Positions 2,885-13,219 of a DNA stretch of 14,541 bases are shown here, in pieces. This stretch comes from Patescibacteria group bacterium (GTDB lineage Bacteria; Patescibacteria; UBA1384; CAILIB01). Position 1 is the stretch's first letter. The number at the start of each line of letters is the position of its first letter. The notes below the pieces were generated by a model. The model did not search any database. It worked only from the letters and a program-made list of their open reading frames with translations, and was not told the origin of the DNA. Location of the stretch: the NCBI GenBank assembly GCA_020696955.1, contig JAJFBK010000006.1:1-14541 (forward strand), written 5' to 3'. The position numbers and the translations under genes are program-made.

Positions 2885-3726
2885 AGTCGTATCCATGAAG
2901 AAGGGATAAGATCTTTGGTGTCATTTTCATCAGTAGCGAACCATCGCTCAGGAGCAATCACGATCTTTTCAGGATTAGCCGCAAGCCAGGCTCCCCACCA
3001 GCTGAAGGTACTGTTAGCAAGGATGAAATGCTTACAATTGCTCATGAGGCGTAGATCCTCTTGGGCAGCGGCACCATTGTGGATTACATAGGTTGCCGGG
3101 TGGTCAACCTTAAGATTTTCCTTAGTCCATTCTGGGTCATCGGAAAAAATGTAAAAGTGAGGATTTGAAACCTTGCCGGCCACAAAATTTACCGCCTTCT
3201 GGTAGTAGTCCAATGAGGAAGTGCCATGGTAGCTGTTGGTAGACTTACTGGAAACGTAATCTCCCCGCCGTACATGAAGGGAAACCGCCTGAGCCTCCGT
3301 GATGTCTTTGAGGAGGGTGGCATTTAAGTCCTCGGCCACAGTCTTGAGGACGAACTCTTCTTTTATGATGTCGGCTATTTCAAGAAAGTATTTTTCACTT
3401 TGAAAATATCCTTCCAGGTAAGTGTCAGGACCGGCTTGGAGAATTTCAGGATCAAAGGTAAAGGTTTTTTCTTTCAGGTAAGTCTTAAGATTTCCGGTAC
3501 CTAAAATGCTTTTGAGTCCACCACCTTTCAGCTTTTTGACCTCTTCCTTAGTGGCCATATCTGCTGATATGTTGTAGCGCTCTAGGTCGTAGGTTCGGTT
3601 CGGTGACTTCTTGTACCACTCAATATCCAGCTTAAGGTCGGTCTTATGCCGTGCGGCCAGAGCCCTGGCCACGCTGTACTGGAAGAGCTGGTTTCCTAGT
3701 CCGCCTTGTAATTTGATGATAATCAT
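2881..3726 (-). CDS. Alpha-1,2-fucosyltransferase-like glycosyltransferase (GT11)
   Basis: GT11 family enzyme of 281 residues, about the usual length of bacterial alpha-1,2-fucosyltransferases. The N-terminal LQGGLGNQLFQYSVARALA (6-24) is the family hallmark. HVRRGDYV (151-158) is the GDP-fucose binding HxRRxDY motif. FSDD (194-197) and ANSTFSWWGAWL (237-248) complete the conserved set. It would transfer fucose, or a similar GDP-linked deoxyhexose, onto a galactose-like acceptor at the cytoplasmic face. The gene overlaps its neighbours on both sides by ATGA. No GDP-fucose synthesis genes (manC, gmd, fcl) are visible here, so the donor must be made elsewhere in the genome. The start is fixed by the overlap and by alignment with the family N-terminus; there is no visible Shine-Dalgarno sequence, which suggests translational coupling. 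Confidence 0.93.
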   Translation of the reverse strand: MIIIKLQGGLGNQLFQYSVARALAARHKTDLKLDIEWYKKSPNRTYDLERYNISADMATKEEVKKLKGGGLKSILGTGNLKTYLKEKTFTFDPEILQAGPDTYLEGYFQSEKYFLEIADIIKEEFVLKTVAEDLNATLLKDITEAQAVSLHVRRGDYVSSKSTNSYHGTSSLDYYQKAVNFVAGKVSNPHFYIFSDDPEWTKENLKVDHPATYVIHNGAAAQEDLRLMSNCKHFILANSTFSWWGAWLAANPEKIVIAPERWFATDENDTKDLIPSSWIRL

Positions 3727-4631
3727 TTGAAAAACTGTTGGTACTGCTTTTTATTCTCCTGTATATAGTGTGGCAAATCTTTTTCATCTGTCCAGAACCT
3801 GAACCTGCGGCCAACGAAATCCTTGTTGTCTCGCATCTTTTCCTCGATCTGCGATTTTATCTCTTCGTTATTGAATTCCTGATGTCCGTATGACTCAAGC
3901 TTCTTCCGGATTCGGTCGGCTCCTCCCTGGTTGGTGAAATGCCAGCCTCCGTTTTTGAGGTAGGTGTACCTTGTTTTGCTGACTGTGCGAAGATGGTTCA
4001 GGCAGTTTTCCCGAATGTTCTTGTATTTTGTAACCAGGGTTCCGGCCCAAGGCTCACTAGACCGGTTGTTCAGGTAATAGGCATAGACAAGCTGGCGTAG
4101 CTTGAAGATATCATTTTTGGTGTAGTCTATCAGCGTTTCAGGATTCCAGATTTCATCAACATCAGAGATGAAACAGATATCATTGTCGGCCAGGTCGGCC
4201 AGGGGTTTCTTTATAGACTCCTTTTGATAAAACTCCTTCAGCCAATGAAGCTGACCCTTGGGAACGTTATCGCTGGTCAGGGCATTCTCAATGATTTTCC
4301 GATCAAGATCGCTTATCTTTTTATCTTCCAGTCGCTTGCGCAAGTCTTCTTCACTGGTTGGCACATCGTCGATAACGTAATGGATTATCTTGTCAGCATA
4401 CTTTTTATACCTCGCCTTGTTTTCTTGAAAGTGAAGCGGCTTAGGATTGCCAGAAAAGGTCTCGTTTGACTCGATGATCACGAAGTGGTCGACGTGGGGA
4501 GCCAGAATTTCAAGTCGGATGTCCAGCAGTTCTAACTCATTGAAAAAGGTAAAGACATCGTAAATCTTGATGGTTTTACGGTACTCGGCCAGTTCTTCCC
4601 TGGATTTTCCGTTTCTTTTAAATATTTTCAT
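3723..4631 (-). CDS. GT17-like glycosyltransferase (MGAT3-related family)
   Basis: 302-residue protein resembling GT17, the family of the eukaryotic enzyme that adds bisecting beta-1,4-GlcNAc to N-glycans; prokaryotic members are common in polysaccharide clusters but little characterised. Seen in the sequence: IYDVFTFFNELELLDIRL (23-40), the VDHFVIIESNETFSGNPKPL region (47-66), SDVDEI (156-161), which is the probable DxD metal site, and GGWHFT (228-233). These match the order of motifs I know for GT17. The C-terminal third is highly charged. The gene ends in a Phe-Phe-Lys stop context that overlaps the GT11 start by ATGA and starts in an identical context. By family analogy it could add a GlcNAc-type residue, but donor and linkage are not inferable. 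Confidence is high for the family and low for the specificity. Confidence 0.85.
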   Translation of the reverse strand: MKIFKRNGKSREELAEYRKTIKIYDVFTFFNELELLDIRLEILAPHVDHFVIIESNETFSGNPKPLHFQENKARYKKYADKIIHYVIDDVPTSEEDLRKRLEDKKISDLDRKIIENALTSDNVPKGQLHWLKEFYQKESIKKPLADLADNDICFISDVDEIWNPETLIDYTKNDIFKLRQLVYAYYLNNRSSEPWAGTLVTKYKNIRENCLNHLRTVSKTRYTYLKNGGWHFTNQGGADRIRKKLESYGHQEFNNEEIKSQIEEKMRDNKDFVGRRFRFWTDEKDLPHYIQENKKQYQQFFK

Positions 4632-5383
4632 TTGAAAAGGTTTTTTATTTTGTTTTTTACTCCTTTGGCAGTGGCAGGCTTTGCCACGAAGTCCTTAGGA
4701 AGCGGCTTCAGCATGGTTTCAGCGATCTCAAAATTGCTACTCCACAGAGTGTAGAAGGCCCTCTCAATGATGTGAGATTCACCTGGAATGGCCGTCTCGC
4801 AGTGAGAGACAAAGGTCTGCAGGTTTTGATAGAAAACTTTGGGGAGTTTTAAAATATTAGCTCGTGGAACCACATAGTTGGCTCCGGGCGCAAAGCGAAT
4901 GTAGCGTGGAGTTACGGGATCCTTGTAGCAAAATCGAAGGAAATCGTTGTAATCATGGAAATATTTGGTCGGGTGGTACTCCAGGAACCAGCTATTGTTT
5001 ATTTCGCAAAAGCCTCCGTCAGAGGAGAAAAAAGAGGTTGGCCATGACTCCTGCCATTTGCGACGATCTTCGATAGGCGTAAAAAAAGCACTGTTCACTA
5101 CTTTATCGAAATGGTCCTGAAAAACGTGGCGGGGGAAGACATTGCCAGTGGCGAAAATGGTGACCTCAGGCAAATCATCATAATGATCAATGATGAAGGT
5201 GCAGTAATCCCGAATGTTATGTCCTAGGTGTGGACTTTTAATTACCTTCTTAAGATCAAGATTTTTTGGATAGTTTTCCGTAGGACTCTGGTCATACACC
5301 AAGTAGTTGTCAGTGTAGTTGGCAACCCATTCGATCTCGTTGTTGTAGTTCGAAAGAACTAAGAAGTTTTTTGTAATTTTCAT
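4628..5383 (-). CDS. DUF3431-like protein, putative glycosyltransferase
   Basis: 251-residue protein without the motifs of a well-known transferase. The segments GHNIRDYCTFIIDHYDDLPE (54-73) followed by VTIFATGN, GANYVVPRANIL (167-178) and ESHIIERAFYTLW (202-214) resemble the DUF3431 family, which is found next to glycosyltransferases and is often assumed to be one. There is no signal peptide and no clear membrane segment. The basic C-terminal tail (KGVKNKIKNLFK) could rest on the membrane surface. It sits between two fucosyltransferase-like genes and the GT17-like gene with ATGA overlaps on both sides, so a role in building the same glycan is likely. A GGTGA stretch just ahead of the start could serve as a ribosome binding site. 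The catalytic mechanism and sugar are unknown, and the assignment to DUF3431 is from memory of motif pattern only. Confidence 0.75.
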   Translation of the reverse strand: MKITKNFLVLSNYNNEIEWVANYTDNYLVYDQSPTENYPKNLDLKKVIKSPHLGHNIRDYCTFIIDHYDDLPEVTIFATGNVFPRHVFQDHFDKVVNSAFFTPIEDRRKWQESWPTSFFSSDGGFCEINNSWFLEYHPTKYFHDYNDFLRFCYKDPVTPRYIRFAPGANYVVPRANILKLPKVFYQNLQTFVSHCETAIPGESHIIERAFYTLWSSNFEIAETMLKPLPKDFVAKPATAKGVKNKIKNLFK

Positions 5384-6393
5384 GTCACCATTTTCTTAAC
5401 TTTTCCAGCTGCGTAACGTAGGAGGGAGAGTTGCTTCTTGGCAAAGACTTTGATCCGACTGTTAGGCACGAAGGTGTACAGATTCTCGGTGGGGGCCTCC
5501 GGATAATAGTCTGGATGATCCTTAACATATTTGTCATGTTCCTTTTTGCAGCTCTCATAGTCAAAGAACTTTCCATTCCGGTCCAAATACATCCAGCCTT
5601 TGATCATATTGTAGCTGCAGCCCCAAAAGCCATCAGAAGTATTGTGCTGGGCCCAGTATTTTGGAGCAATGCAGAGTTTCAGTCCTTGGTTTAGCCAAGC
5701 CGGAAAACAGGCGAAGCTTGAGTTTGAAAGGATCAGATACTTGGCATTTTTAATGACGACGTAATCCTTAGAAATGCTAAAGTGATTCACTTCGAAATCC
5801 GGAAAGAATTTCTTGGCAGTCACTACGTCATCGGTAATTACCACGAATCGAAAGTTCTTGTTGATACTTCGCATATGGGCGACGGCGTAATCCCAGTAGC
5901 TCTGAGGGAGGAACACATGAGGGACCTCGACATATTCTCCACCACGGAAGTTTATGACGCAGATGTCATCGCTTGAGTAGTCAAAGCACTCATACTCTTT
6001 CTTGACTTCGAGCCATTTTCTAACCTCGTCCTTTCGATGGGCAATATAGCGTTCATCCTGCATGATACCGTCAATTTTGGTATTGTCGGGGATATTTACC
6101 AGATTAGGATCGTAGGTCCGAATGTCCACGCCGTTTACAGGATGATTGATTCTTCGCTCTACATAATAATGCTGGATGCCCTCTGGCAACGTATAAGGCG
6201 GCCCGCCTTCGGGGCCGCTTCCGCTAATGACAGGCTTGCCAAAATCTAGGCTTAGAAAATCATTGCACTTAAACTTCTCCGGTGACTTGATTCCGAAGCC
6301 GTATCCCTTATCAGTGGCAATGACCCTGGTAGCCACATAGCACCAGAGCTGGTTTCCCAGTCCTTGTCCGTTGTATATCTCTGTTACGACCAT
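5380..6393 (-). CDS. Divergent GT11-like (fucosyltransferase-related) protein
   Basis: 337-residue protein related to GT11. The N-terminal NGQGLGNQLWCYVATRVIA (8-26) matches the GGLGNQLFQY hallmark, VITDD (185-189) matches the FSDD segment, and LSNSSFACFPAWL (222-234) matches the NSTFSWWGAWL motif. At the position of the GDP-binding HxRRxDY motif it carries NFRGGEYV (148-155), so the histidine, the second arginine and the aspartate are replaced by Asn, Gly and Glu. The ends are extended relative to the neighbouring canonical GT11, with a tyrosine-rich tail and a basic C-terminus. This may be a transferase with a different donor, or a paralogue with altered activity; it does not look like a decaying gene, because the frame is intact over the full length. 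It overlaps the upstream fusion gene by 10 bases and the downstream gene by ATGA. Confidence 0.8.
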   Translation of the reverse strand: MVVTEIYNGQGLGNQLWCYVATRVIATDKGYGFGIKSPEKFKCNDFLSLDFGKPVISGSGPEGGPPYTLPEGIQHYYVERRINHPVNGVDIRTYDPNLVNIPDNTKIDGIMQDERYIAHRKDEVRKWLEVKKEYECFDYSSDDICVINFRGGEYVEVPHVFLPQSYWDYAVAHMRSINKNFRFVVITDDVVTAKKFFPDFEVNHFSISKDYVVIKNAKYLILSNSSFACFPAWLNQGLKLCIAPKYWAQHNTSDGFWGCSYNMIKGWMYLDRNGKFFDYESCKKEHDKYVKDHPDYYPEAPTENLYTFVPNSRIKVFAKKQLSLLRYAAGKVKKMVT

Positions 6394-7808
6394 AGTCTTT
6401 TGCGAACTATTCTCATTACGTCGCCCAGGTAGGCCCAGGTAGATATGGCTTTTTTGTTATTGTGAAATCCAAAAGGTTTGGCATATGAATCCTCACAATC
6501 TTTCTCTCGGCTGAACCTCGAGGCGACTTCTACCGGCGGGAAAGAAATACCGTAATCTTCTAGTTTTTTCCTATAGTACACGCAAATCACCCCATCTTCA
6601 TTATAAAAGCCGGTACCGTTATCGGTAAAAGGAAGTTTGAGTTCATTCAGGGCATCGAGCATCTTTTTGCTGCGAAGTGAAAAGCCTCCGTTGCCAATCC
6701 TGACGTTTACTCCCTCGTTAGTGAAATGAACATCCTTAGGCCAGGGAGCCCCCAGATAGTCATAATCCAAGAAGCTGTCACTCCACTTATGGGGCCGAAG
6801 TACGTAGGCATCGTTGTGAACGATAAGGGCAAAGTCGCTTTCAATATAATCGGTAAGACTGTAAAGCATGAACTTGCTGTAGTCGTCAGTGTTCTTGGGG
6901 TCTTGGTTTTGAAGCTCAGTTGGCTTGCACTTTTTAAAGGTGATCCGAGGGTCAAGGTTCTCTGGCTTGTAATGAGCGACAAGTACGGCCTCGTTGAAGT
7001 CGATTCCTTTCATTGAGATTTCAAGGGCTTTGACTGCGCCAGTAGGGTTTATGCCTGAAACTGCTACGAGACTTACTCTTTTGAGCTGTAGTTTTTCTGA
7101 ACTCTTTGATGAATGTTTCTTTTTCATGTAGTCGTATTCACGTTTTCTGAGAGCGGTAGTAGCTTCGGTATTGGTGATCTGATGGTCTCCGGTTCGGATG
7201 ACAGTGGTTAGCTCATTCAGGATCTTTGGACTGCCAAAGAGGTCATAGTAACGCTTGTAGTAATCACAGTCGACAAGCCAGGTCAGATTAAGATCAAAAA
7301 GAAGCGGTTTTTCGTTTCGGATTGTAAGAACCGAAGGCGAGCCAATGGTGTTTTTTCCAAGATATACTTTGGAGTTGTATTTGGGATAATGCGGCCTGGT
7401 AAATGTGGTTCCGTCACTCGTATGCTCGCAACCACTTACCTGCCACCAGTCTTTTTCGAGATCAAAGTTTTGAACGATTACTTCGAGAGCTTTGTCGTTT
7501 CGAAGAAAGTCGTCCTGGAAAAGGATTTTTAGCAGTTTCCCCTTAGCATGCCGAATGACATTATTGGTGTTGGATGACATGCCGATACGGGGATCGGTAT
7601 TCTTGTGATAATGAATGTCCAACTTGTCCTTGTAGTCTGCGACCAGGTCCTTAATAAGGCTATCCTTGGAATAGTCGGAAATAACCACCTCAAAATCCTT
7701 GAACGTCTGAGCGACCAGGATGTCTAGGCTTTGTTTCAAAAAGAGATGGCCCTTTCCGCCCATTTCATAGGTAGGGATGCCGACAGTTAGGAGGGGAGTC
7801 TTACTCAT
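6384..7808 (-). CDS. Two-domain glycosyltransferase: GT2 fused to DUF5672
   Basis: 474-residue protein with two recognisable halves. Residues 1 to about 230 are a GT2-type GT-A domain: LLTVGIPTYEMGGKGHLFLK, ISDYSKD, and ILFQDD (95-100) as the metal site. A basic linker (about 225-245, rich in Lys and Ser) leads to a DUF5672 domain at about 245-450, with YSKFMLYSLTDYIESDFALIV, YDYLGAPWP (349-357), IGNGGFSLRS (371-380), a conserved Glu-Asp (404-405), VASRFSRE (428-435) and FGFHN (446-450). DUF5672 is a presumed glycosyltransferase-like domain usually found as a stand-alone protein or as a part of larger sugar transferases. The likely role is two sequential sugar additions, or one transferase with a helper domain. 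The ribosome binding site AAAAGGA lies 6 bases before the ATG, inside the end of the upstream SDR gene, with an 8-base overlap. Confidence 0.87.
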   Translation of the reverse strand: MSKTPLLTVGIPTYEMGGKGHLFLKQSLDILVAQTFKDFEVVISDYSKDSLIKDLVADYKDKLDIHYHKNTDPRIGMSSNTNNVIRHAKGKLLKILFQDDFLRNDKALEVIVQNFDLEKDWWQVSGCEHTSDGTTFTRPHYPKYNSKVYLGKNTIGSPSVLTIRNEKPLLFDLNLTWLVDCDYYKRYYDLFGSPKILNELTTVIRTGDHQITNTEATTALRKREYDYMKKKHSSKSSEKLQLKRVSLVAVSGINPTGAVKALEISMKGIDFNEAVLVAHYKPENLDPRITFKKCKPTELQNQDPKNTDDYSKFMLYSLTDYIESDFALIVHNDAYVLRPHKWSDSFLDYDYLGAPWPKDVHFTNEGVNVRIGNGGFSLRSKKMLDALNELKLPFTDNGTGFYNEDGVICVYYRKKLEDYGISFPPVEVASRFSREKDCEDSYAKPFGFHNNKKAISTWAYLGDVMRIVRKRLWS

Positions 7809-8688
7809 GAAAAGTCCTTTTAATGCCTTCTTCGATGGAAACCCGAGGGCTCCATCCTGGTATTGTCTCTCCTTTGTTCCACGTTTCCATAACTTCTCGA
7901 GGACGATACTCTTTTTCGCCCCATTGTATGGGAAGAGTAGTGCCAGTGACTTCTTCGAAAGTAGCGGCCAGACTTTTCAGGCTCTCAGGCGCACCGGAAC
8001 TGATGGCAAAGGCTCGCCCTCGAAGCTCTGGTCCCTTGTCACTTGAAAGCAATGAGATCATCTGAACATAGCCATCAATAACGTTATCGATGAAGCTTAT
8101 GTCGATAAGCTGTTCGCCTGGAGACATGCCGAGGGGGTCCTGGCTTTTGCTGGTCTTGAGCCAGAGATTGAACACTTTTGCTCTCGTATCGCCAGGCCCA
8201 AACGTATCGCTGAGCTGGATGGTAACGAAGTTGACGGGAGAAGTCTGAAGATAGTACTGGGCAATATCTTCAAAAGCCTGCTTGGTAGCGGCGTATAGGT
8301 TGACCGGAGAATAGGCTTCATTCTGATAGTGCTGCCAGAACGTTCCAGTATTGATAAACCATGGGGTCTTGGCGGTAACTGCGGATTCCAGCAAGGTAGT
8401 GGGGAAAAGAACGTTCGAGTCTACGAGGTTTTTGATGTCATCACTTTTATGGGCCGCCAGAAAGAGGGATGCAAGATGGATAATGCCATCAAATTGTTCC
8501 TGCTCAAGAAAAGCCGTCAGCGCATGTATGTCATCATTAAAAACATATGGCCTAATGTTTCCTGTGGTGAGGGTGCTGGTATCGGTGGAAGGGCGGACGA
8601 TGGCAAATACTTCGTTACCTTCTTTAGCAAGCCGTTCAGTAAGGTGCTTGCCGATAAAGCCGGTGGCGCCGCTGATCAAAAGTTTCAT
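7801..8688 (-). CDS. SDR reductase, probable CDP-4-keto-(3,6-dideoxy)hexose 4-reductase
   Basis: 295-residue extended SDR. The NAD(P)-binding motif is GATGFIG (7-13), the active-site threonine is in NTGTFW (113-118), and the catalytic pair is Tyr132/Lys136 in YAATK. The NTGTFWQH and NLYAATKQAFE segments recall the CDP-abequose/paratose synthase group, which reduces the C4 keto group of CDP-3,6-dideoxyhexuloses. The genes directly upstream supply exactly such a substrate, and an RmlC-like epimerase sits between, so the natural reading is the last step of a CDP-ascarylose-type pathway (the AscF role). The family and cofactor binding are clear. The stereochemistry of reduction, and hence the final sugar, is inferred from context only. 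The start is fixed by an ATGA overlap with the epimerase gene; no Shine-Dalgarno sequence is evident there. Confidence 0.86.
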   Translation of the reverse strand: MKLLISGATGFIGKHLTERLAKEGNEVFAIVRPSTDTSTLTTGNIRPYVFNDDIHALTAFLEQEQFDGIIHLASLFLAAHKSDDIKNLVDSNVLFPTTLLESAVTAKTPWFINTGTFWQHYQNEAYSPVNLYAATKQAFEDIAQYYLQTSPVNFVTIQLSDTFGPGDTRAKVFNLWLKTSKSQDPLGMSPGEQLIDISFIDNVIDGYVQMISLLSSDKGPELRGRAFAISSGAPESLKSLAATFEEVTGTTLPIQWGEKEYRPREVMETWNKGETIPGWSPRVSIEEGIKRTFHE

Positions 8689-9224
8689 TGGAATGGGGTT
8701 TGGAATTCTTCAAAATGAGGAAAGCTCAGGTCCCGCTCGGACATTATCGGCTTGGAAATGTCCCATTGCAGGCCAAAGGAGTGAGCGTGGATTCCCTTGT
8801 CATGTTCAGGCGAGTGCATGGTGGTCTGCAAGTAGGTGACAGCCGTTCCATCTTCTAGTGAGAGAAAACCATGGGCAAAGCCGGAGGGGATATAAATTGC
8901 CTTATGGTTTTCAGCTGAGAGCTCAAAGGTAAGATGCTTTCCGTAGGTCGGAGAGTTCTTGCGGATATCTAGCACTACATCCAAGATGGAGCCCCTTGTT
9001 ACGTAAACCAGTTTGGCATGATCCTGTGGAGGTGACTGAAAGTGCATGCCTCGGATCACGTTTTTTTTCGAGGTAGAGTAGTAACTTTCTTGGAAGTCGG
9101 TGCCGAGACTTTCTTTTTCGAAAGCTTCTTTGTGGAATGTTTTGGTGAAAGTGCCTCTTTCGTCTATAAAATGAGGGGGTTCGATGACCCTGATTCCTTC
9201 AAGGTCGGTGCGGTGGATATTCAT
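8685..9224 (-). CDS. RmlC-like sugar-nucleotide epimerase (probable CDP-hexulose 5-epimerase, AscE role)
   Basis: 179-residue cupin of the dTDP-4-dehydrorhamnose 3,5-epimerase family. FIDERGTFTKTF (19-30), IRGMHFQ with the catalytic-base histidine His61, IPSGFAHGF (112-120), and SERD with Asp165 (partner of the His in RmlC) are all present. The segment after Tyr131, where RmlC usually has one or two tyrosines before a proline, reads TTMHSPEHDKG, so these tyrosines are replaced by Met136/His137. Its place between the CDP-glucose dehydratase and a 4-reductase suggests that it works on a CDP-linked keto sugar rather than on dTDP-rhamnose intermediates; no rmlA, rmlB or rmlD is visible. The start at 9224 makes an ATGA overlap with rfbG; an in-frame ATG at 9236 would add four residues. 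The family is certain, the substrate is inferred. Confidence 0.88.
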   Translation of the reverse strand: MNIHRTDLEGIRVIEPPHFIDERGTFTKTFHKEAFEKESLGTDFQESYYSTSKKNVIRGMHFQSPPQDHAKLVYVTRGSILDVVLDIRKNSPTYGKHLTFELSAENHKAIYIPSGFAHGFLSLEDGTAVTYLQTTMHSPEHDKGIHAHSFGLQWDISKPIMSERDLSFPHFEEFQTPFQ

Positions 9225-10321
9225 AGGGTCGCCCATTCAACGGACAGCTTTTGGGCATCGTTCACGTAATCAGCTAAATCTTTCTCGCTCTGAACCGTGT
9301 TTGAACCGTAGTATTCTTTGTACCAACCAACCGTCTTTTCAAAGGTCTTGTGGCTGTCCCAGACACTGCTCCACTTGAGTTTGGTTCTGGCCTTTGAAGA
9401 GTTAAGGGTAAGAAGTCCTGCCTCATGGACATTGTGCGGGCTCTCTTGAATGTCATAGGAAATGTCTTCCCAGTGCGGCTTAGTCTGAGAGATTACTTCA
9501 TTTACGGTAAGAGAAGAATCATCATTGGGGCCGAAATTCCAGTTCTCGGCAAACTCTGGCTTGCCTTCGAGCAGCTTCCAACCAACGTGAAGATAGCCGC
9601 TCAAGGGCTCCAGCACATGCTGCCATGGTCGGACTGCTTTGGGACTGCGAATGATGACGGTTTCTTTCTTGGCAGTGGCCTTCATGATGTCTGGAATCAA
9701 ACGATCTTTGGCCCAGTCGCCTCCGCCGATGACATTGCCGGCCCTGACGTCAGCCAACAGGGTGCTATGGTTTTTTCCGTACTGGTTCGTGTTGAAGAAA
9801 GAGTTTCGGTAGGAATTTGCTACGAGTTCAGCGCAGCCTTTTGAGGCGCTGTAAGGATCGTATCCACCCATGGCATCTTCTTCCACGTAACCTCTGAGGT
9901 GCTCATTGTTCTGATAGCACTTGTCACTGGTGATGTTTACGATGGCTTTGACGCTTCCAGCCTTCCGGCAGCTTTCCAGGACATTGACCGTACCCATTAC
10001 GTTTGTCTCGAAAGTCTCAACCGGCGTGGTGTAAGAATCTCGGACCAAGGCTTGGGCAGCCATATGAAAGACAATGTCCGGCTGAAAAGACGTTATAGTT
10101 TCTTGAAGCTTTTGCTTGTCGAGGATGCTGCCCGTAACTGAAGTAACATTAAGACCTAAAAGTTCGTAATGATTTGGATCGGACGGAAGGCTTAGGGAAT
10201 ATCCCATGACCTCGGCACCCATTTTTGAAAGCCAAAGGGCCAGCCACGAGCCTTTGAATCCGGTGTGGCCGGTGATCAGTACCTTTTTCCCTTTGTAGAT
10301 GCCGCCAAATAAGGTTTCCAT
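9221..10321 (-). CDS. rfbG: CDP-glucose 4,6-dehydratase
   Basis: Converts CDP-glucose to CDP-4-keto-6-deoxyglucose with tightly bound NAD, the entry point to 6-deoxy and 3,6-dideoxy CDP-sugars in the cytoplasm. 366 residues, about the usual length. Motifs: GHTGFKG (18-24) for NAD binding, TSDKCY (131-136) with the active-site Thr and Asp, YSASK (157-161) with catalytic Tyr157 and Lys161, RAGNVIGGGDWA (193-204) and RPWQHVLEPL (231-240), the last two being highly characteristic of this subgroup as opposed to dTDP-glucose or GDP-mannose dehydratases. The ATG directly follows the TAA of rfbF with no gap, and a GGA sits 5 bases upstream. Also called ddhB or ascB in dideoxyhexose pathways. Confidence 0.96.
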   Translation of the reverse strand: METLFGGIYKGKKVLITGHTGFKGSWLALWLSKMGAEVMGYSLSLPSDPNHYELLGLNVTSVTGSILDKQKLQETITSFQPDIVFHMAAQALVRDSYTTPVETFETNVMGTVNVLESCRKAGSVKAIVNITSDKCYQNNEHLRGYVEEDAMGGYDPYSASKGCAELVANSYRNSFFNTNQYGKNHSTLLADVRAGNVIGGGDWAKDRLIPDIMKATAKKETVIIRSPKAVRPWQHVLEPLSGYLHVGWKLLEGKPEFAENWNFGPNDDSSLTVNEVISQTKPHWEDISYDIQESPHNVHEAGLLTLNSSKARTKLKWSSVWDSHKTFEKTVGWYKEYYGSNTVQSEKDLADYVNDAQKLSVEWATL

Positions 10322-11098
10322 TTATTTCCAGGTTTTCCAGAAGGCCTTGTCTTGCTCCCAGATTTTGTTCAAGTGATTGAGGTCACGCTCGGTGTCTACG
10401 CACTCCCAGTTCGAGAGATGTTTGTAGACCATTACTTCTCCGAGAGGTACCAGCTTTTCAAAGGTGTCATACTCAAGGTCGCAGGTTTCGTCTTCAGTCA
10501 GGTAATTGAAGAGCCGTTTGTCGAATACCATGAAGCCACCATTGATCAGTCCGACCGTGGTCTGCGGCTTTTCTTTAAAGGATACGAGAGATCCTTTTTC
10601 TTCCATGATTTCTCCAAACCGAGCAGGGGGTCGCACGCCGCTAATAGTGAGGATCTTGCCGTGTGACTTGTGGAACTCTATAAGCTTGTCGATATCGATA
10701 TCGGCCACGCCGTCACCGTAAGTAGCCATGTTGATGTCGTCATCGAGATACTTCTCCACACGCTTCAAGCGAGCTCCCTTAAGGGTATTGAGGCCGGTAT
10801 CGACGAGGGAAATATTCCAGTCCTTTTCGTCATGGGAAGCCAGGATCTCCACGTCTTTGGTGCCTAGGTGCATCTTAAAGTCGTTGGCAGTAATGTTGTA
10901 GTTGTGAAAATACTGCTTGATGACTTCCTGCTTGTATCCCAAGCTCAAGATAAAGTCCTTGTGCCCGAAGTGGGAGTAGGTCTTCATGATGTGCCAGATG
11001 ATTGGCTTGTCACCGATGCGGACCATCGGCTTAGGGATCTGTTCTGTAATATTACCTAATCGTGTGCCGAAACCACCGGCCAAAATAATTACTTTCAT
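10322..11098 (-). CDS. rfbF: Glucose-1-phosphate cytidylyltransferase
   Basis: Makes CDP-glucose from CTP and alpha-D-glucose-1-phosphate, the first committed step for the CDP-sugar cassette. 258 residues from the chosen start, matching the usual length of about 257. The nucleotide-binding signature GGFGTRL (8-14) with downstream IPKPM, the metal-site segment YGDGVADI (127-134), RFGE (160-163), EKP (176-178) and NGGFMV (186-191) are all in family order. An in-frame ATG at 11146 would add 16 residues and overlap rfbH by 29 bases. I prefer 11098, because the family begins MK(A/V)(V/I)ILAGG and the added residues (Ser/Asn-rich) look like out-of-frame rfbH sequence. Between the rfbH stop and this start are 19 bases with only a weak AAGAA as possible ribosome binding site. 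Also called ddhA or ascA. Confidence 0.95.
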   Translation of the reverse strand: MKVIILAGGFGTRLGNITEQIPKPMVRIGDKPIIWHIMKTYSHFGHKDFILSLGYKQEVIKQYFHNYNITANDFKMHLGTKDVEILASHDEKDWNISLVDTGLNTLKGARLKRVEKYLDDDINMATYGDGVADIDIDKLIEFHKSHGKILTISGVRPPARFGEIMEEKGSLVSFKEKPQTTVGLINGGFMVFDKRLFNYLTEDETCDLEYDTFEKLVPLGEVMVYKHLSNWECVDTERDLNHLNKIWEQDKAFWKTWK

Positions 11099-11117
11099 GG
11101 AAGAGTTCTTAGAGAAA

Positions 11118-12341
11118 TTATTCGAATTTTGAGAGGAACTCGGCAAACTTCTCTTTCATGTATTCGATTTGTTCTGGTTCAAGACCGTGGTGAGATCCTA
11201 CTACGAACCCATTACGCATAATGTTCTCGGCATTCGGGTACTCTTCCTGGGCCAAACGGTGCTCAATGGCGGTGAAGCCCGGCTGCTTAAGAATGTTTCC
11301 GGTGAAGATTGGACGAGTCTGAATGTTTTCGTCTTCGAGGAAGGTTACCATTTCCAGACGAGTAAACGGAGCTCCTTCTTTGATGATAAGAGGGAAGGCA
11401 AGCCATACGGTTTCTGTCTCAGGAGTCTGACGTGGAAGCGTGAAGTACTGTGGATAGGTCTTGCCAAAGTGCTCAAGCAGGTTGGCAAAGTTGGTGCGGC
11501 GAGCTTGCTCGTTCTTTGGGAATTTCTGGAGCTGAACAAGGGCAAAAGCCGAAGAGATTTCGAGTGGCAGGAAGTTGTATCCAATTTCGCTGAAGATGAA
11601 CTTGTTGTCGTAAGGAATGCCAAAGAGCTCTGTCTTGAAGCGGTTGGCGATCAGTTCGGAACTGTCTTTGTCAAAGAGTGATGACTGACGTCCCCAGCCA
11701 CGCATGACCAGCAGGCGCTCGTACCATTTGTCATCATTTACGCAGATCATTCCACCGCCACCTGCACCGTTGATGATGTGGGAGCCGTAGAAGCTAGTAG
11801 TGGTGATGTGGGAATAAGTTCCGCTTGGCTTACCCTTGAAGGTGCCACCAAGAGTGTCGCAGGAATCTTCAATGAAGAAGATGTTGTGCTTGTCAGCCAA
11901 CTCACGGAGCTTTTCCATGTTAGGAATGTTTCCCATCAAGGAAGGGATCATCAAGGCGCCAGTCTTTTCAGTGATGGCTGCTTCTACTTGCTCAAGATTG
12001 ACGATGTAGGTGTCAGGATCGACGTCAACGAATACCGGAATAAATCCTTTTTGAACGAAAGGGGCGACAGTAGTTGAGAAAGTAAGGATTGGGGTGATAA
12101 CCTCGGTTCCTCGAGGAAGGCCAAGGAGCTCAAATGCCAAGAGGTTGGCTGATGATCCGGAGTTGACCATTACGCCGTACTTTTTTCCAAGAATGGCAGC
12201 GATCTTGGCCTCGAATTCTTCGGTCTTAGGGCCAAGAGCAGTGTTACCCTTGAGAACTTCTACTACGGCGTCAATTTCTTCTTGTCCATGAACGGAGAAA
12301 CCATAAGGCACTCTCATCTTTGTTTGTTTTTGATTTTCCAT
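11118..12341 (-). CDS. rfbH: RfbH-like PLP-dependent CDP-4-keto-6-deoxyglucose 3-dehydratase lacking Fe-S cysteines
   Basis: DegT/DnrJ/EryC1/StrS-fold protein of 407 residues, first gene of the minus-strand CDP-sugar operon. In the classical pathway this enzyme (E1, AscC/DdhC) removes the C3 hydroxyl of CDP-4-keto-6-deoxyglucose using PMP and a [2Fe-2S] cluster fed by the reductase E3. Seen here: SGSSANLLA (61-69), Asp159 in IEDS as cofactor ring partner, and SFYGSHIINGAGGGG (183-197) with His188 where aminotransferases have the PLP lysine, so it should be a dehydratase rather than an aminotransferase. After RGWGR (214-218), where classical E1 has the cluster cysteines, residues 219-255 contain no cysteine; the only cysteines in the protein are Cys161 and Cys200. 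A GTG at 12356 is an alternative start, but ATG at 12341 has AAAGGA ahead of it. Confidence 0.9.
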   Translation of the reverse strand: MENQKQTKMRVPYGFSVHGQEEIDAVVEVLKGNTALGPKTEEFEAKIAAILGKKYGVMVNSGSSANLLAFELLGLPRGTEVITPILTFSTTVAPFVQKGFIPVFVDVDPDTYIVNLEQVEAAITEKTGALMIPSLMGNIPNMEKLRELADKHNIFFIEDSCDTLGGTFKGKPSGTYSHITTTSFYGSHIINGAGGGGMICVNDDKWYERLLVMRGWGRQSSLFDKDSSELIANRFKTELFGIPYDNKFIFSEIGYNFLPLEISSAFALVQLQKFPKNEQARRTNFANLLEHFGKTYPQYFTLPRQTPETETVWLAFPLIIKEGAPFTRLEMVTFLEDENIQTRPIFTGNILKQPGFTAIEHRLAQEEYPNAENIMRNGFVVGSHHGLEPEQIEYMKEKFAEFLSKFE

Positions 12342-12430: not shown

Positions 12431-12457
12431 AGATGGTTTGGTTTATTGTTTACTGCA

Positions 12458-12486
12458 TTGACTTTCAAGCAATTTTTTGCTATATT
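12458..12486 (+). promoter_or_regulatory. Near-consensus extended -10 sigma-70 promoter of the DUF218 gene
   Basis: TTGACT (12458-12463, 5 of 6), exactly 17 bases, then TATATT (12481-12486, 5 of 6) preceded by TGC, an extended -10. Transcription should start near 12493, giving a leader of about 40 bases before the ATG at 12536. By sequence this is the strongest promoter in the window. An upstream in-frame ATG at 12446 lies before this promoter, so it cannot be the start on this transcript. Confidence 0.8.
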
Positions 12487-12522
12487 TTCTCATTGCCGTT
12501 CTGCGGTTTGTTCCTTTTATTT

Positions 12523-12527
12523 GGAGG
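12523..12527 (+). promoter_or_regulatory. Strong ribosome binding site of the DUF218 gene
   Basis: GGAGG, 8 bases ahead of the ATG at 12536. It fixes the start of this gene and is the clearest Shine-Dalgarno sequence in the window. Confidence 0.85.
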
Positions 12528-12535
12528 TTGCAATA

Positions 12536-13219
12536 ATGCCCCAAGAGCAATGGACTCCCAGCATCCAAGAGATGTTATCTGTAATGCGCCACCTAAAGGA
12601 AGAGATTCCTCCTATTCTATGTGATGCACTCTTCGTTCATGGGTCGGTAGTTGCTGATTGGGATCTGAATCACGGCCTAATCAGTAGTGCTGCCAGGAAT
12701 TATCATTTAGGTTTTTCCGAGAAGATTGTCCTCAATGGGCTGACTTCCTGGCAATCAAGAGAACTGGGAGTTGCATACCGTGGTTATGAAGAATGGCAGC
12801 TGGTCCTTTTGGAACAAGGGGTTAGGAAGGACGATGTGGTTCTTCTGGATCCTTCGTTCAATACGGGAGAGGAATCCCGTCATCTTCTTGCTATGGCTAT
12901 ACGGAAGGGATGGTCAAAAGTGATTATCTCAACCCAAGAGTTTCATCAGCCCCGATGTTTCTTGCAGATCATTGCAGAGATGGAAAGAGAGAGTCGCTTC
13001 ATCTCGGTCTTTAATGCCCCGGCACCCCGCGTAGAATGGGAGCGTTACATGGTTAAGCCCGTTATGGGCGGTGTGCAAGAAGAGGGTACAATGGCCTATC
13101 ATGTGGTAAAGGAGCTTGAGAGAATTCAAAGGTACGCCCAACCCAGTGAAGGTGAGTCTTTTATTCGGCATGCGACTTTCCCTGAAATGGAAGCATATCT
13201 AAAAAGGAGAGACGGATAG
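12536..13219 (+). CDS. DUF218/YdcF-like family protein, 227 residues
   Basis: The only plus-strand gene. The core resembles the DUF218 domain (SanA/YdcF/ElyC group): a first strand DALFVHGSVV (30-39), an Asn-Gly turn after KIVLNG (63-68), LLEQGVRKDDVVLLD (91-105), the hallmark NTGEES (109-114), and STQEFHQPRCFLQI (132-145), equivalent to the family's T-x-x-(Y/F)H-x-x-R segment. There is no signal peptide and no membrane segment, so unlike SanA or ElyC it should be cytoplasmic. Family members are linked to envelope and cell-wall homeostasis, but no reaction is firmly established; here the role is unknown. It has a full transcription unit of its own (promoter, GGAGG site, hairpin terminator) and lies opposite to all neighbours. 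The start at 12536 is chosen from the ribosome binding site and promoter. Assignment rests on motif pattern only. Confidence 0.82.
   Translation: MPQEQWTPSIQEMLSVMRHLKEEIPPILCDALFVHGSVVADWDLNHGLISSAARNYHLGFSEKIVLNGLTSWQSRELGVAYRGYEEWQLVLLEQGVRKDDVVLLDPSFNTGEESRHLLAMAIRKGWSKVIISTQEFHQPRCFLQIIAEMERESRFISVFNAPAPRVEWERYMVKPVMGGVQEEGTMAYHVVKELERIQRYAQPSEGESFIRHATFPEMEAYLKRRDG

What the first reader, a model, noticed from the sequence alone, without database searches (positions are those of the whole stretch)
11118..12341. RfbH-like 3-dehydratase without the iron-sulfur cysteines
Seen: His188 occupies the PLP-lysine position (SFYGSH), the hallmark of sugar 3-dehydratases, but the loop after RGWGR (residues 219-255), where classical E1/RfbH carries its four cluster cysteines (a C-x-C-x(3)-C-x(3)-C-like run, recalled from the Salmonella and Yersinia enzymes), has Ser/Asp/Leu-rich sequence and no cysteine. 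Known: E1 needs the [2Fe-2S] cluster and the reductase E3 to complete deoxygenation, while ColD, a GDP-sugar 3-dehydratase, also has a His but no cluster and regenerates PMP from glutamate. Inference: this protein would represent a cluster-free, ColD-like route acting on a CDP-sugar. I recall similar cysteine-free RfbH homologues in other genomes, so the subfamily may be widespread but biochemically open.
Basis: partly seen in the sequence, partly recalled or inferred. Interest (0 to 1): 0.7.

Follow-up and report, generated by a model that had tools for sequence, protein, structure and literature searches.

The report
Iron-free dideoxysugar dehydratase, RfbH's sister
A gene from what looks like an ultra-small uncultured bacterium appears to encode an enzyme that removes an oxygen from a CDP-linked sugar without the iron-sulfur cluster that its textbook relative needs, and it has many relatives built the same way.

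Summary
The 407-aa protein (11118-12341, minus strand) has His188 where aminotransferases have the PLP-lysine, and no cysteine in the loop after RGWGR. One correction: of the four residues taken here as E1 cluster ligands (C193, C251, C253, C261; identities recalled, spacing and conservation checked), one lies upstream and is kept (Cys161); the other three are missing. It is not a one-off: 240 of 240 listed homologues lack all three and keep the His. Representatives form a well-supported clade, apparently nearer Fe-S RfbH/E1 than ColD, in Patescibacteria, Alphaproteobacteria and Actinomycetota. The window operon is CDP-glucose chemistry (rfbF, rfbG) plus an RmlC-type epimerase and an SDR, resembling a Sphingomonas operon with Fe-S RfbH and reductase E3. 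Best reading: a PMP-dependent, probably glutamate-recharged CDP-4-keto-6-deoxyglucose 3-dehydratase in an ascarylose-like pathway. Chemistry is inferred, not shown. Lack of a nearby E3 gene is weak evidence: most Fe-S loci examined also lack one. Whether the family lost the cluster or E1 gained it is unresolved. No description of this family turned up in the (capped) open-access paper searches. New variant of a known kind.

The parts
11118..12341 (-). Cluster-free RfbH/E1-like sugar 3-dehydratase (DegT/DnrJ fold), 407 aa
   Evidence: Pfam PF01041 266.6 bits; NF011936 RfbH 340.5 bits, below its cut-off 423; nearest solved sequence E1 3bcx
11778..11780 (-). His188 codon, at the PLP-lysine position (E1 His220, ColD His188)
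   Evidence: His in 240 of 240 listed homologues
11577..11687 (-). Residues 219-255, the loop that carries C251, C253 and C261 in E1; no cysteine here
11859..11861 (-). Cys161 codon, aligned with E1 C193, the only presumed cluster ligand kept
   Evidence: replaced by Ala in 4 of 9 cluster-free plasmid proteins read
10322..11101 (-). rfbF, glucose-1-phosphate cytidylyltransferase (ATG at 11101 taken as start; the listed ORF opens at a TTG at 11146)
   Evidence: TIGR02623 295.2 bits (cut-off 300.25, just under); 47% to Salmonella RfbF
9221..10321 (-). rfbG, CDP-glucose 4,6-dehydratase
   Evidence: TIGR02622 480.6 bits, over cut-off 278.45
8685..9236 (-). RmlC-family sugar epimerase, presumed C5-epimerase of the 4-keto-3,6-dideoxy sugar
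   Evidence: TIGR01221 170.5 bits (cut-off 155.75); 48.6% to RfbC of the Sphingomonas Fe-S RfbH operon, 57.9% over 79% of its length to a gene of G211, 37.9% to Salmonella dTDP-type RfbC
7801..8688 (-). SDR-family protein, presumed C4-reductase
   Evidence: PF01370; 38.1% to the Sphingomonas operon SDR, 55.8% to the SDR of G211, 22.8% to Salmonella CDP-paratose synthase

Best explanation
The protein is a cluster-free, PMP-dependent 3-dehydratase. Inferred mechanism: PMP forms a ketimine with the C4 keto group of CDP-4-keto-6-deoxyglucose made by the neighbouring RfbF and RfbG; His188, which cannot hold PLP as an internal aldimine, removes the PMP methylene proton and the C3 hydroxyl leaves; with no cluster to bring electrons the intermediate is hydrolysed to PLP and an enamine that loses ammonia, giving CDP-4-keto-3,6-dideoxyglucose; L-glutamate then recharges PLP to PMP. 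The RmlC-type epimerase and the SDR would finish a 3,6-dideoxy-L-hexose of the ascarylose kind for a surface glycan. Shown here: catalytic His, lack of cluster cysteines across a family, operon content, E1-like fold of the model. Inferred: every chemical step, glutamate as donor, and the exact sugar.
For: His at the lysine position and none of the three loop ligands in 240 of 240 listed homologues. In the 85 aligned rows, 20 have all three loop ligands and the 51 of the cluster-free clade have none; exceptions are named under evidence against. Gene order rfbH-like, rfbF, rfbG, rmlC, SDR, with gaps of 16 and 0 bases and then short overlaps; 7 of 7 alphaproteobacterial loci read have rfbF and rfbG just upstream. 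The window RmlC and SDR are, after a CPR relative (G211), most like those of the Sphingomonas operon that uses Fe-S RfbH with E3, so the step in between is probably the same. One family member is fused to a dTDP-glucose 4,6-dehydratase and another to a sugar C-methyltransferase, both fitting partners of a 4-keto sugar enzyme. No E3-profile hit in 34 of 34 cluster-free loci against 4 of 22 Fe-S loci with one. Glutamate- and PLP-driven C3 dehydration without E3 is reported for ColD-type enzymes (PMC8987622 section 25; PMC10440746 passages). AF2 model pLDDT 93.7; Foldseek ranks E1 first, then ColD.
Confidence: 0.7

Rival explanations
1. A 3-dehydratase that still needs an external reductase: electrons from a free flavin or ferredoxin reductase reach the PMP-sugar intermediate directly, without a cluster in the dehydratase.
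For: The nearest characterised relative is E1, which needs E3. 8 of 24 cluster-free genomes contain a PF00175 reductase domain somewhere.
Against: No E3-profile hit in 34 of 34 cluster-free loci, stretches of 3.5 to 19.9 kb. Plant-type ferredoxin domain PF00111 in 1 of 24 cluster-free genomes, weakly at 21.4 bits. 16 of 24 such genomes have no PF00175 match, though the genomes may be incomplete.
Confidence: 0.08
2. An aminotransferase-like enzyme that puts an amino group on the 4-keto sugar, as SpnQ does when no reductase is present.
For: DegT/DnrJ fold; SpnQ does this with PLP and glutamate (PMC8987622 section 25).
Against: No lysine at the catalytic position in 240 of 240 listed homologues; ColD and E1 did not do this under like conditions; the following epimerase and SDR genes expect a 4-keto product.
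Confidence: 0.08
3. A 3-dehydratase, but on a sugar other than CDP-4-keto-6-deoxyglucose, or with a different end product, the rfbF and rfbG neighbours serving a separate branch.
For: A family member is fused to, and another neighbours, a dTDP-glucose 4,6-dehydratase over its cut-off; RmlB-profile hits in 4 of 24 and rfbF hits in 4 of 24 patescibacterial cluster-free loci; close relative L049 shows neither rfbF nor rfbG in 18.5 kb.
Against: In the window rfbF and rfbG follow directly in a tight operon, as in the Azambacteria locus L002 and beside 7 of 7 alphaproteobacterial loci.
Confidence: 0.12

Closest known systems
E1 / AscC / DdhC / RfbH (CDP-6-deoxy-4-hexulose 3-dehydrase), PDB 3bcx, NCBIfam NF011936
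   Different: Three of four presumed cluster cysteines absent; below the NF011936 cut-off (340.5 against 423); separate well-supported clade; no E3 gene in the window
ColD / WbdK (GDP-4-keto-6-deoxymannose 3-dehydratase), PDB 2gms, 3b8x, 2r0t, and the C. jejuni HS:5 and HS:11 C3-dehydratases
   Same: Catalytic His, Ser before it (ColD), no cluster; expected glutamate-driven cycle
   Different: Works in GDP-mannose or GDP-heptose pathways; lower sequence score (190 bits); own clade in the best tree
SpnQ-type dTDP-sugar 3-dehydratases of actinomycetes
   Same: 3-dehydratase of the same superfamily
   Different: Carry the Fe-S motif. The Streptomyces row L114, beside dTDP-sugar genes and taken here as SpnQ-like by inference, has all four cysteines
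PDB 9wvy, putative NDP-4-keto-6-deoxyglucose-3-dehydratase
   Same: The aligned stretch shows SFYAGHH and no loop cysteines: another cluster-free His enzyme
   Different: Weak match (123 bits); no paper naming it was found

Membership tests
RfbH/E1 (Fe-S 3-dehydrase) | Four [2Fe-2S] cysteines (positions recalled: C193, C251, C253, C261) | tested here: not met
   Only C161 (=C193) kept; three loop ligands absent in the query and in 240 of 240 listed homologues
RfbH/E1 (Fe-S 3-dehydrase) | Score over the curated NF011936 cut-off | tested here: not met
   340.5 bits against 423
RfbH/E1 (Fe-S 3-dehydrase) | Catalytic His in place of the PLP-lysine | tested here: met
   His188 = His220
RfbH/E1 (Fe-S 3-dehydrase) | E3 reductase partner | tested here: inconclusive
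   No hit in the window or in 33 other cluster-free loci, but 18 of 22 Fe-S loci also lack one nearby and the window genome is not held
RfbH/E1 (Fe-S 3-dehydrase) | CDP-glucose pathway context (rfbF, rfbG) | tested here: met
ColD (GDP-sugar 3-dehydratase) | Catalytic His and no cluster cysteines in the loop | tested here: met
ColD (GDP-sugar 3-dehydratase) | Groups with ColD in a tree | tested here: inconclusive
   Best tree puts ColD outside a group of Fe-S and cluster-free rows; forcing the 51 cluster-free rows with the 5 ColD-group rows is not rejected, p-AU 0.362
ColD (GDP-sugar 3-dehydratase) | GDP-mannose pathway context | tested here: not met
   rfbF and rfbG in the window and no gmd hit there; Paracoccus ColD-type L124 has gmd
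ColD (GDP-sugar 3-dehydratase) | PMP regenerated by L-glutamate with no reductase | not testable with these tools
   Needs enzyme assay

The most novel reading that the evidence does not exclude
This is a separate, widespread cluster-free family of CDP- and dTDP-sugar 3-dehydratases that represents the ancestral state of the RfbH/E1 branch: the Fe-S cluster and reductase dependence of E1 and SpnQ were a later addition to a glutamate-driven enzyme. Fused and neighbouring C-methyltransferases suggest that some members feed C-methyl-3,6-dideoxy sugars.
Probability: 0.3. Interest if true: 0.7.

Novelty: new variant of a known kind. Interest (0 to 1): 0.55.

Why it matters
CDP-3,6-dideoxysugars are described as products of a PMP and Fe-S enzyme, E1, with its reductase E3. 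A cluster-free enzyme for the same step would show the cluster is a dispensable add-on, give a way to ask how a reductase-dependent mechanism arose from a hydrolytic one or the reverse, and correct automatic annotations (one source names such proteins CDP-6-deoxy-D-xylo-4-hexulose-3-dehydrase or E1). It could be useful too: one group could not get product from recombinant E1/E3 of two species and suspected a dysfunctional cluster (PMC7851689, passages); an enzyme needing only PLP and glutamate would sidestep that.

Tried and rejected
Cluster cysteines supplied elsewhere: rejected. The query has two cysteines in all, and 5 of 120 homologues have one; 4 of 9 plasmid proteins read lack even the C193 equivalent (L106, L107, L109, L115).

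Plain loss of the cluster from an Fe-S ancestor: suggested by the careful tree (2 changes), but the tree with the 20 Fe-S rows as one clade had the higher likelihood (p-AU 0.676), so direction is left open.

Absence of E3 as strong proof: rejected after seeing 18 of 22 Fe-S loci without an E3-profile hit nearby. The two Fisher p-values (0.020 for E3 nearby, 4 of 22 against 0 of 34; 0.017 for PF00175 genome-wide, 10 of 13 against 8 of 24) were computed after looking and ignore shared ancestry, genome incompleteness and unequal flank lengths. Two of the four E3 hits are the proteins the profile was built from. Of the 22 Fe-S loci, L118 and L119 were classed by their rfbH annotation only (their proteins failed to extract), and L044 is a gene cut by a contig end with Gly at C261.

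CDP for the whole family: rejected as a general claim; see the rfbF and RmlB counts.

Led nowhere: own-genome search, no genome held; viral contigs, no match; glutamate-site literature; class of G001, only 3 genomes held. A list of positions that differ between the two groups gave no residue I could tie to glutamate. The first cysteine read-out of CPR loci was wrong for minus-strand loci and was redone from called ORFs. Several paper searches were swamped because 'ColD' matches 'cold' (6,140 and 11,176 papers, 20 and 10 listed) or 'SpnQ' matches a questionnaire.

Rows left out of the 83-row tree: P0123 (copy of L045), P0085 and P0101 (copies of L048 and L051), L028 (odd, long branch), L044 (truncated), L037_135 and L046_4378 (lysine-type proteins), L118 and L119 (not extracted). 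L050 and L072 are fusions and were cut to their dehydratase part. 9wvy and SpnQ itself were not in the tree.

Full report
The sequence. ORF 11118-12341 on the minus strand encodes 407 aa starting at the ATG at 12341. It is a DegT/DnrJ-family protein (PF01041, 266.6 bits). The best NCBIfam model is RfbH, NF011936, at 340.5 bits, under its curated cut-off of 423. The best solved relative is E1 (3bcx, 251 bits), then ColD (about 190 bits), with lysine-bearing aminotransferases below. The window looks patescibacterial: the two relatives found in genome contigs are Microgenomates and Azambacteria, and the few homologues that carry an organism name are mostly of such lineages. No whole genome is held for it.

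The active site. His188 aligns with E1 His220 and ColD His188 (the PDB titles for 3bb8, 3b8x and 3gr9 fix the numbering). The E1 cluster motif as I recall it is C193-x57-C251-x-C253-x7-C261, and this spacing is present in the 3bcx sequence. The window protein has C161 at the C193 place and Ser, Leu, Ile at the other three. Among 240 homologues listed by two searches (the best 120 each; P0002 seems to be the window protein itself), 240 lack all three loop ligands and 240 have His at position 220. Only 1 of the 240 has any cysteine in the E1 246-275 span. 5 of the 120 close homologues have a single cysteine in the whole protein, and 4 of 9 plasmid proteins read have Ala at C193, so a four-cysteine cluster is out of reach for those members. 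Two proteins met on the way do not fit either type neatly: L044 (cut by a contig end; two loop ligands, Gly at C261) and L028 (a different cysteine-rich loop); both were left out of the tree.

Distribution. In a phylum sample of 286 genomes, 12 had an NF011936 match over the cut-off and 8 scored 345-396 bits. Of the 12, 11 have all four cysteines and one is the truncated L044; of the 8, 7 are cluster-free and one (G233, L052) has the cysteines. In a class sample of 383 genomes, 18 had a match to the window protein at E 1e-90 or better, and all 18 are cluster-free. Outside Patescibacteria, plasmid records fall into bands: 48.9-53.5% identity in Leisingera, Roseibium/Labrenzia, Palleronia and Sinorhizobium/Ensifer, 41-44% in Rhodococcus and Embleya, then 36.4% or less in RfbH-annotated and other DegT proteins. 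The nine read of the 25 listed in the upper two bands are all cluster-free.

Context. In the window the gene is followed by rfbF, rfbG, an RmlC-type gene and an SDR gene, at gaps of 16 and 0 bases and then short overlaps (taking ATG starts). The RmlC and SDR products are most like those of a CPR relative, G211 (58% and 56%), and then those of a Sphingomonas hengshuiensis operon (48.6% and 38.1%). That operon is E3, rfbF, rfbG, Fe-S rfbH, rfbC, SDR. So a like pathway frame occurs with Fe-S RfbH plus E3 in one organism and with the cluster-free enzyme and no E3 in the window. Seven of seven alphaproteobacterial cluster-free loci have rfbF and rfbG directly upstream, and four of those seven have a C-methyltransferase hit nearby (domains read for one). 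Among 24 patescibacterial cluster-free loci the picture is mixed: rfbF in 4, an RmlB-type hit in 4, one of them a fusion and one an adjacent gene that pass the dTDP-glucose 4,6-dehydratase cut-off. An E3 profile built from the Sphingomonas and Salmonella proteins hits 4 of 22 Fe-S loci (the two it was built from and two weak CPR hits next to RfbH) and 0 of 34 cluster-free loci. Because 18 of 22 Fe-S loci also lack it, this supports the reading only weakly. PF00175 reductase domains occur genome-wide in 10 of 13 Fe-S and 8 of 24 cluster-free CPR genomes. Ferredoxin-type PF00111 occurs in 3 of 37 genomes, one of them cluster-free and weak.

Mechanism. For ColD and for the C. jejuni C3-dehydratase the literature describes PMP ketimine formation, base-driven loss of the C3 hydroxyl, hydrolysis to PLP and an enamine, and recharging by L-glutamate (PMC8987622 section 25; PMC10440746 passages). 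In the C. jejuni pathway an epimerase then acts at C5, followed by a C4-reductase (abstract). The window has CDP-glucose counterparts of these steps. I therefore commit to a glutamate-recharged CDP-4-keto-6-deoxyglucose 3-dehydratase feeding an ascarylose-like sugar, at 0.7. No step is shown biochemically.

Novelty. Searches of the open-access library, each seen as a listing (several capped), showed no paper that describes a cluster-free RfbH sister family; subscription papers are mostly not held. Papers opened: PMC8987622 (outline and section 25), PMC7851689 and PMC10680097 (passages), PMC10440746 (abstract, outline and passages). A deposited structure, 9wvy, named as a putative NDP-4-keto-6-deoxyglucose-3-dehydratase, also shows His and no loop cysteines in its aligned part but is a more distant protein. 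ColD is the established cluster-free precedent, so the kind is known; the CDP-linked variant nearer to E1 is what appears new.

Noticed in passing
L050 8307-10631 (-), genome G223: A family member is fused to a dTDP-glucose 4,6-dehydratase domain (TIGR01181 390.2 bits, over cut-off); L081 has the two as neighbouring genes.
   Followed up: partly
L072 7952-10405 (+), genome G497; L106, L107, L109, L123: A family member is fused to a sugar C-methyltransferase (Methyltransf_13/23/14), and four alphaproteobacterial loci carry such a gene next door; possible C-methyl-3,6-dideoxy sugars.
   Followed up: partly
L034 2148-2831 (-) and L037 8686-9366 (-): Short (227-228 aa) E3-like reductases, with no ferredoxin domain found, lie between Fe-S rfbH and rfbF in two patescibacterial genomes.
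   Followed up: partly
L028 1198-2370 (+), genome G031: A DegT protein with His at the lysine position and a cysteine-rich loop (RACDCVVC) unlike either group, with Ala at C193.
   Followed up: no
L044 2-796 (-), genome G025: An RfbH-type gene cut by a contig end has two of the three loop ligands but Gly at C261; sequence error or real variant is unknown.
   Followed up: no
L023-L027 and L029: A third His-bearing group without the loop cysteines (FSTY-x-AH motif) in Patescibacteria, a separate clade from both ColD and the window family.
   Followed up: no
L116 and L117: An uncultured large phage and a Synechococcus phage encode RfbH-like proteins with all the cluster cysteines.
   Followed up: no
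homologues P0076, P0149, P0174: Public records name some family members 'NarL family transcriptional regulator', clearly a misannotation for these DegT proteins; P0174 is labelled archaeon.
   Followed up: no
window 3723-7808: Genes after the operon include a GT11 match (5380-6393), a GT17 match, a DUF3431 protein and a GT2-DUF5672 fusion, suggesting an unusual surface glycan.
   Followed up: no
window 12446-13219 (+): DUF218-domain protein divergently oriented from the operon.
   Followed up: no
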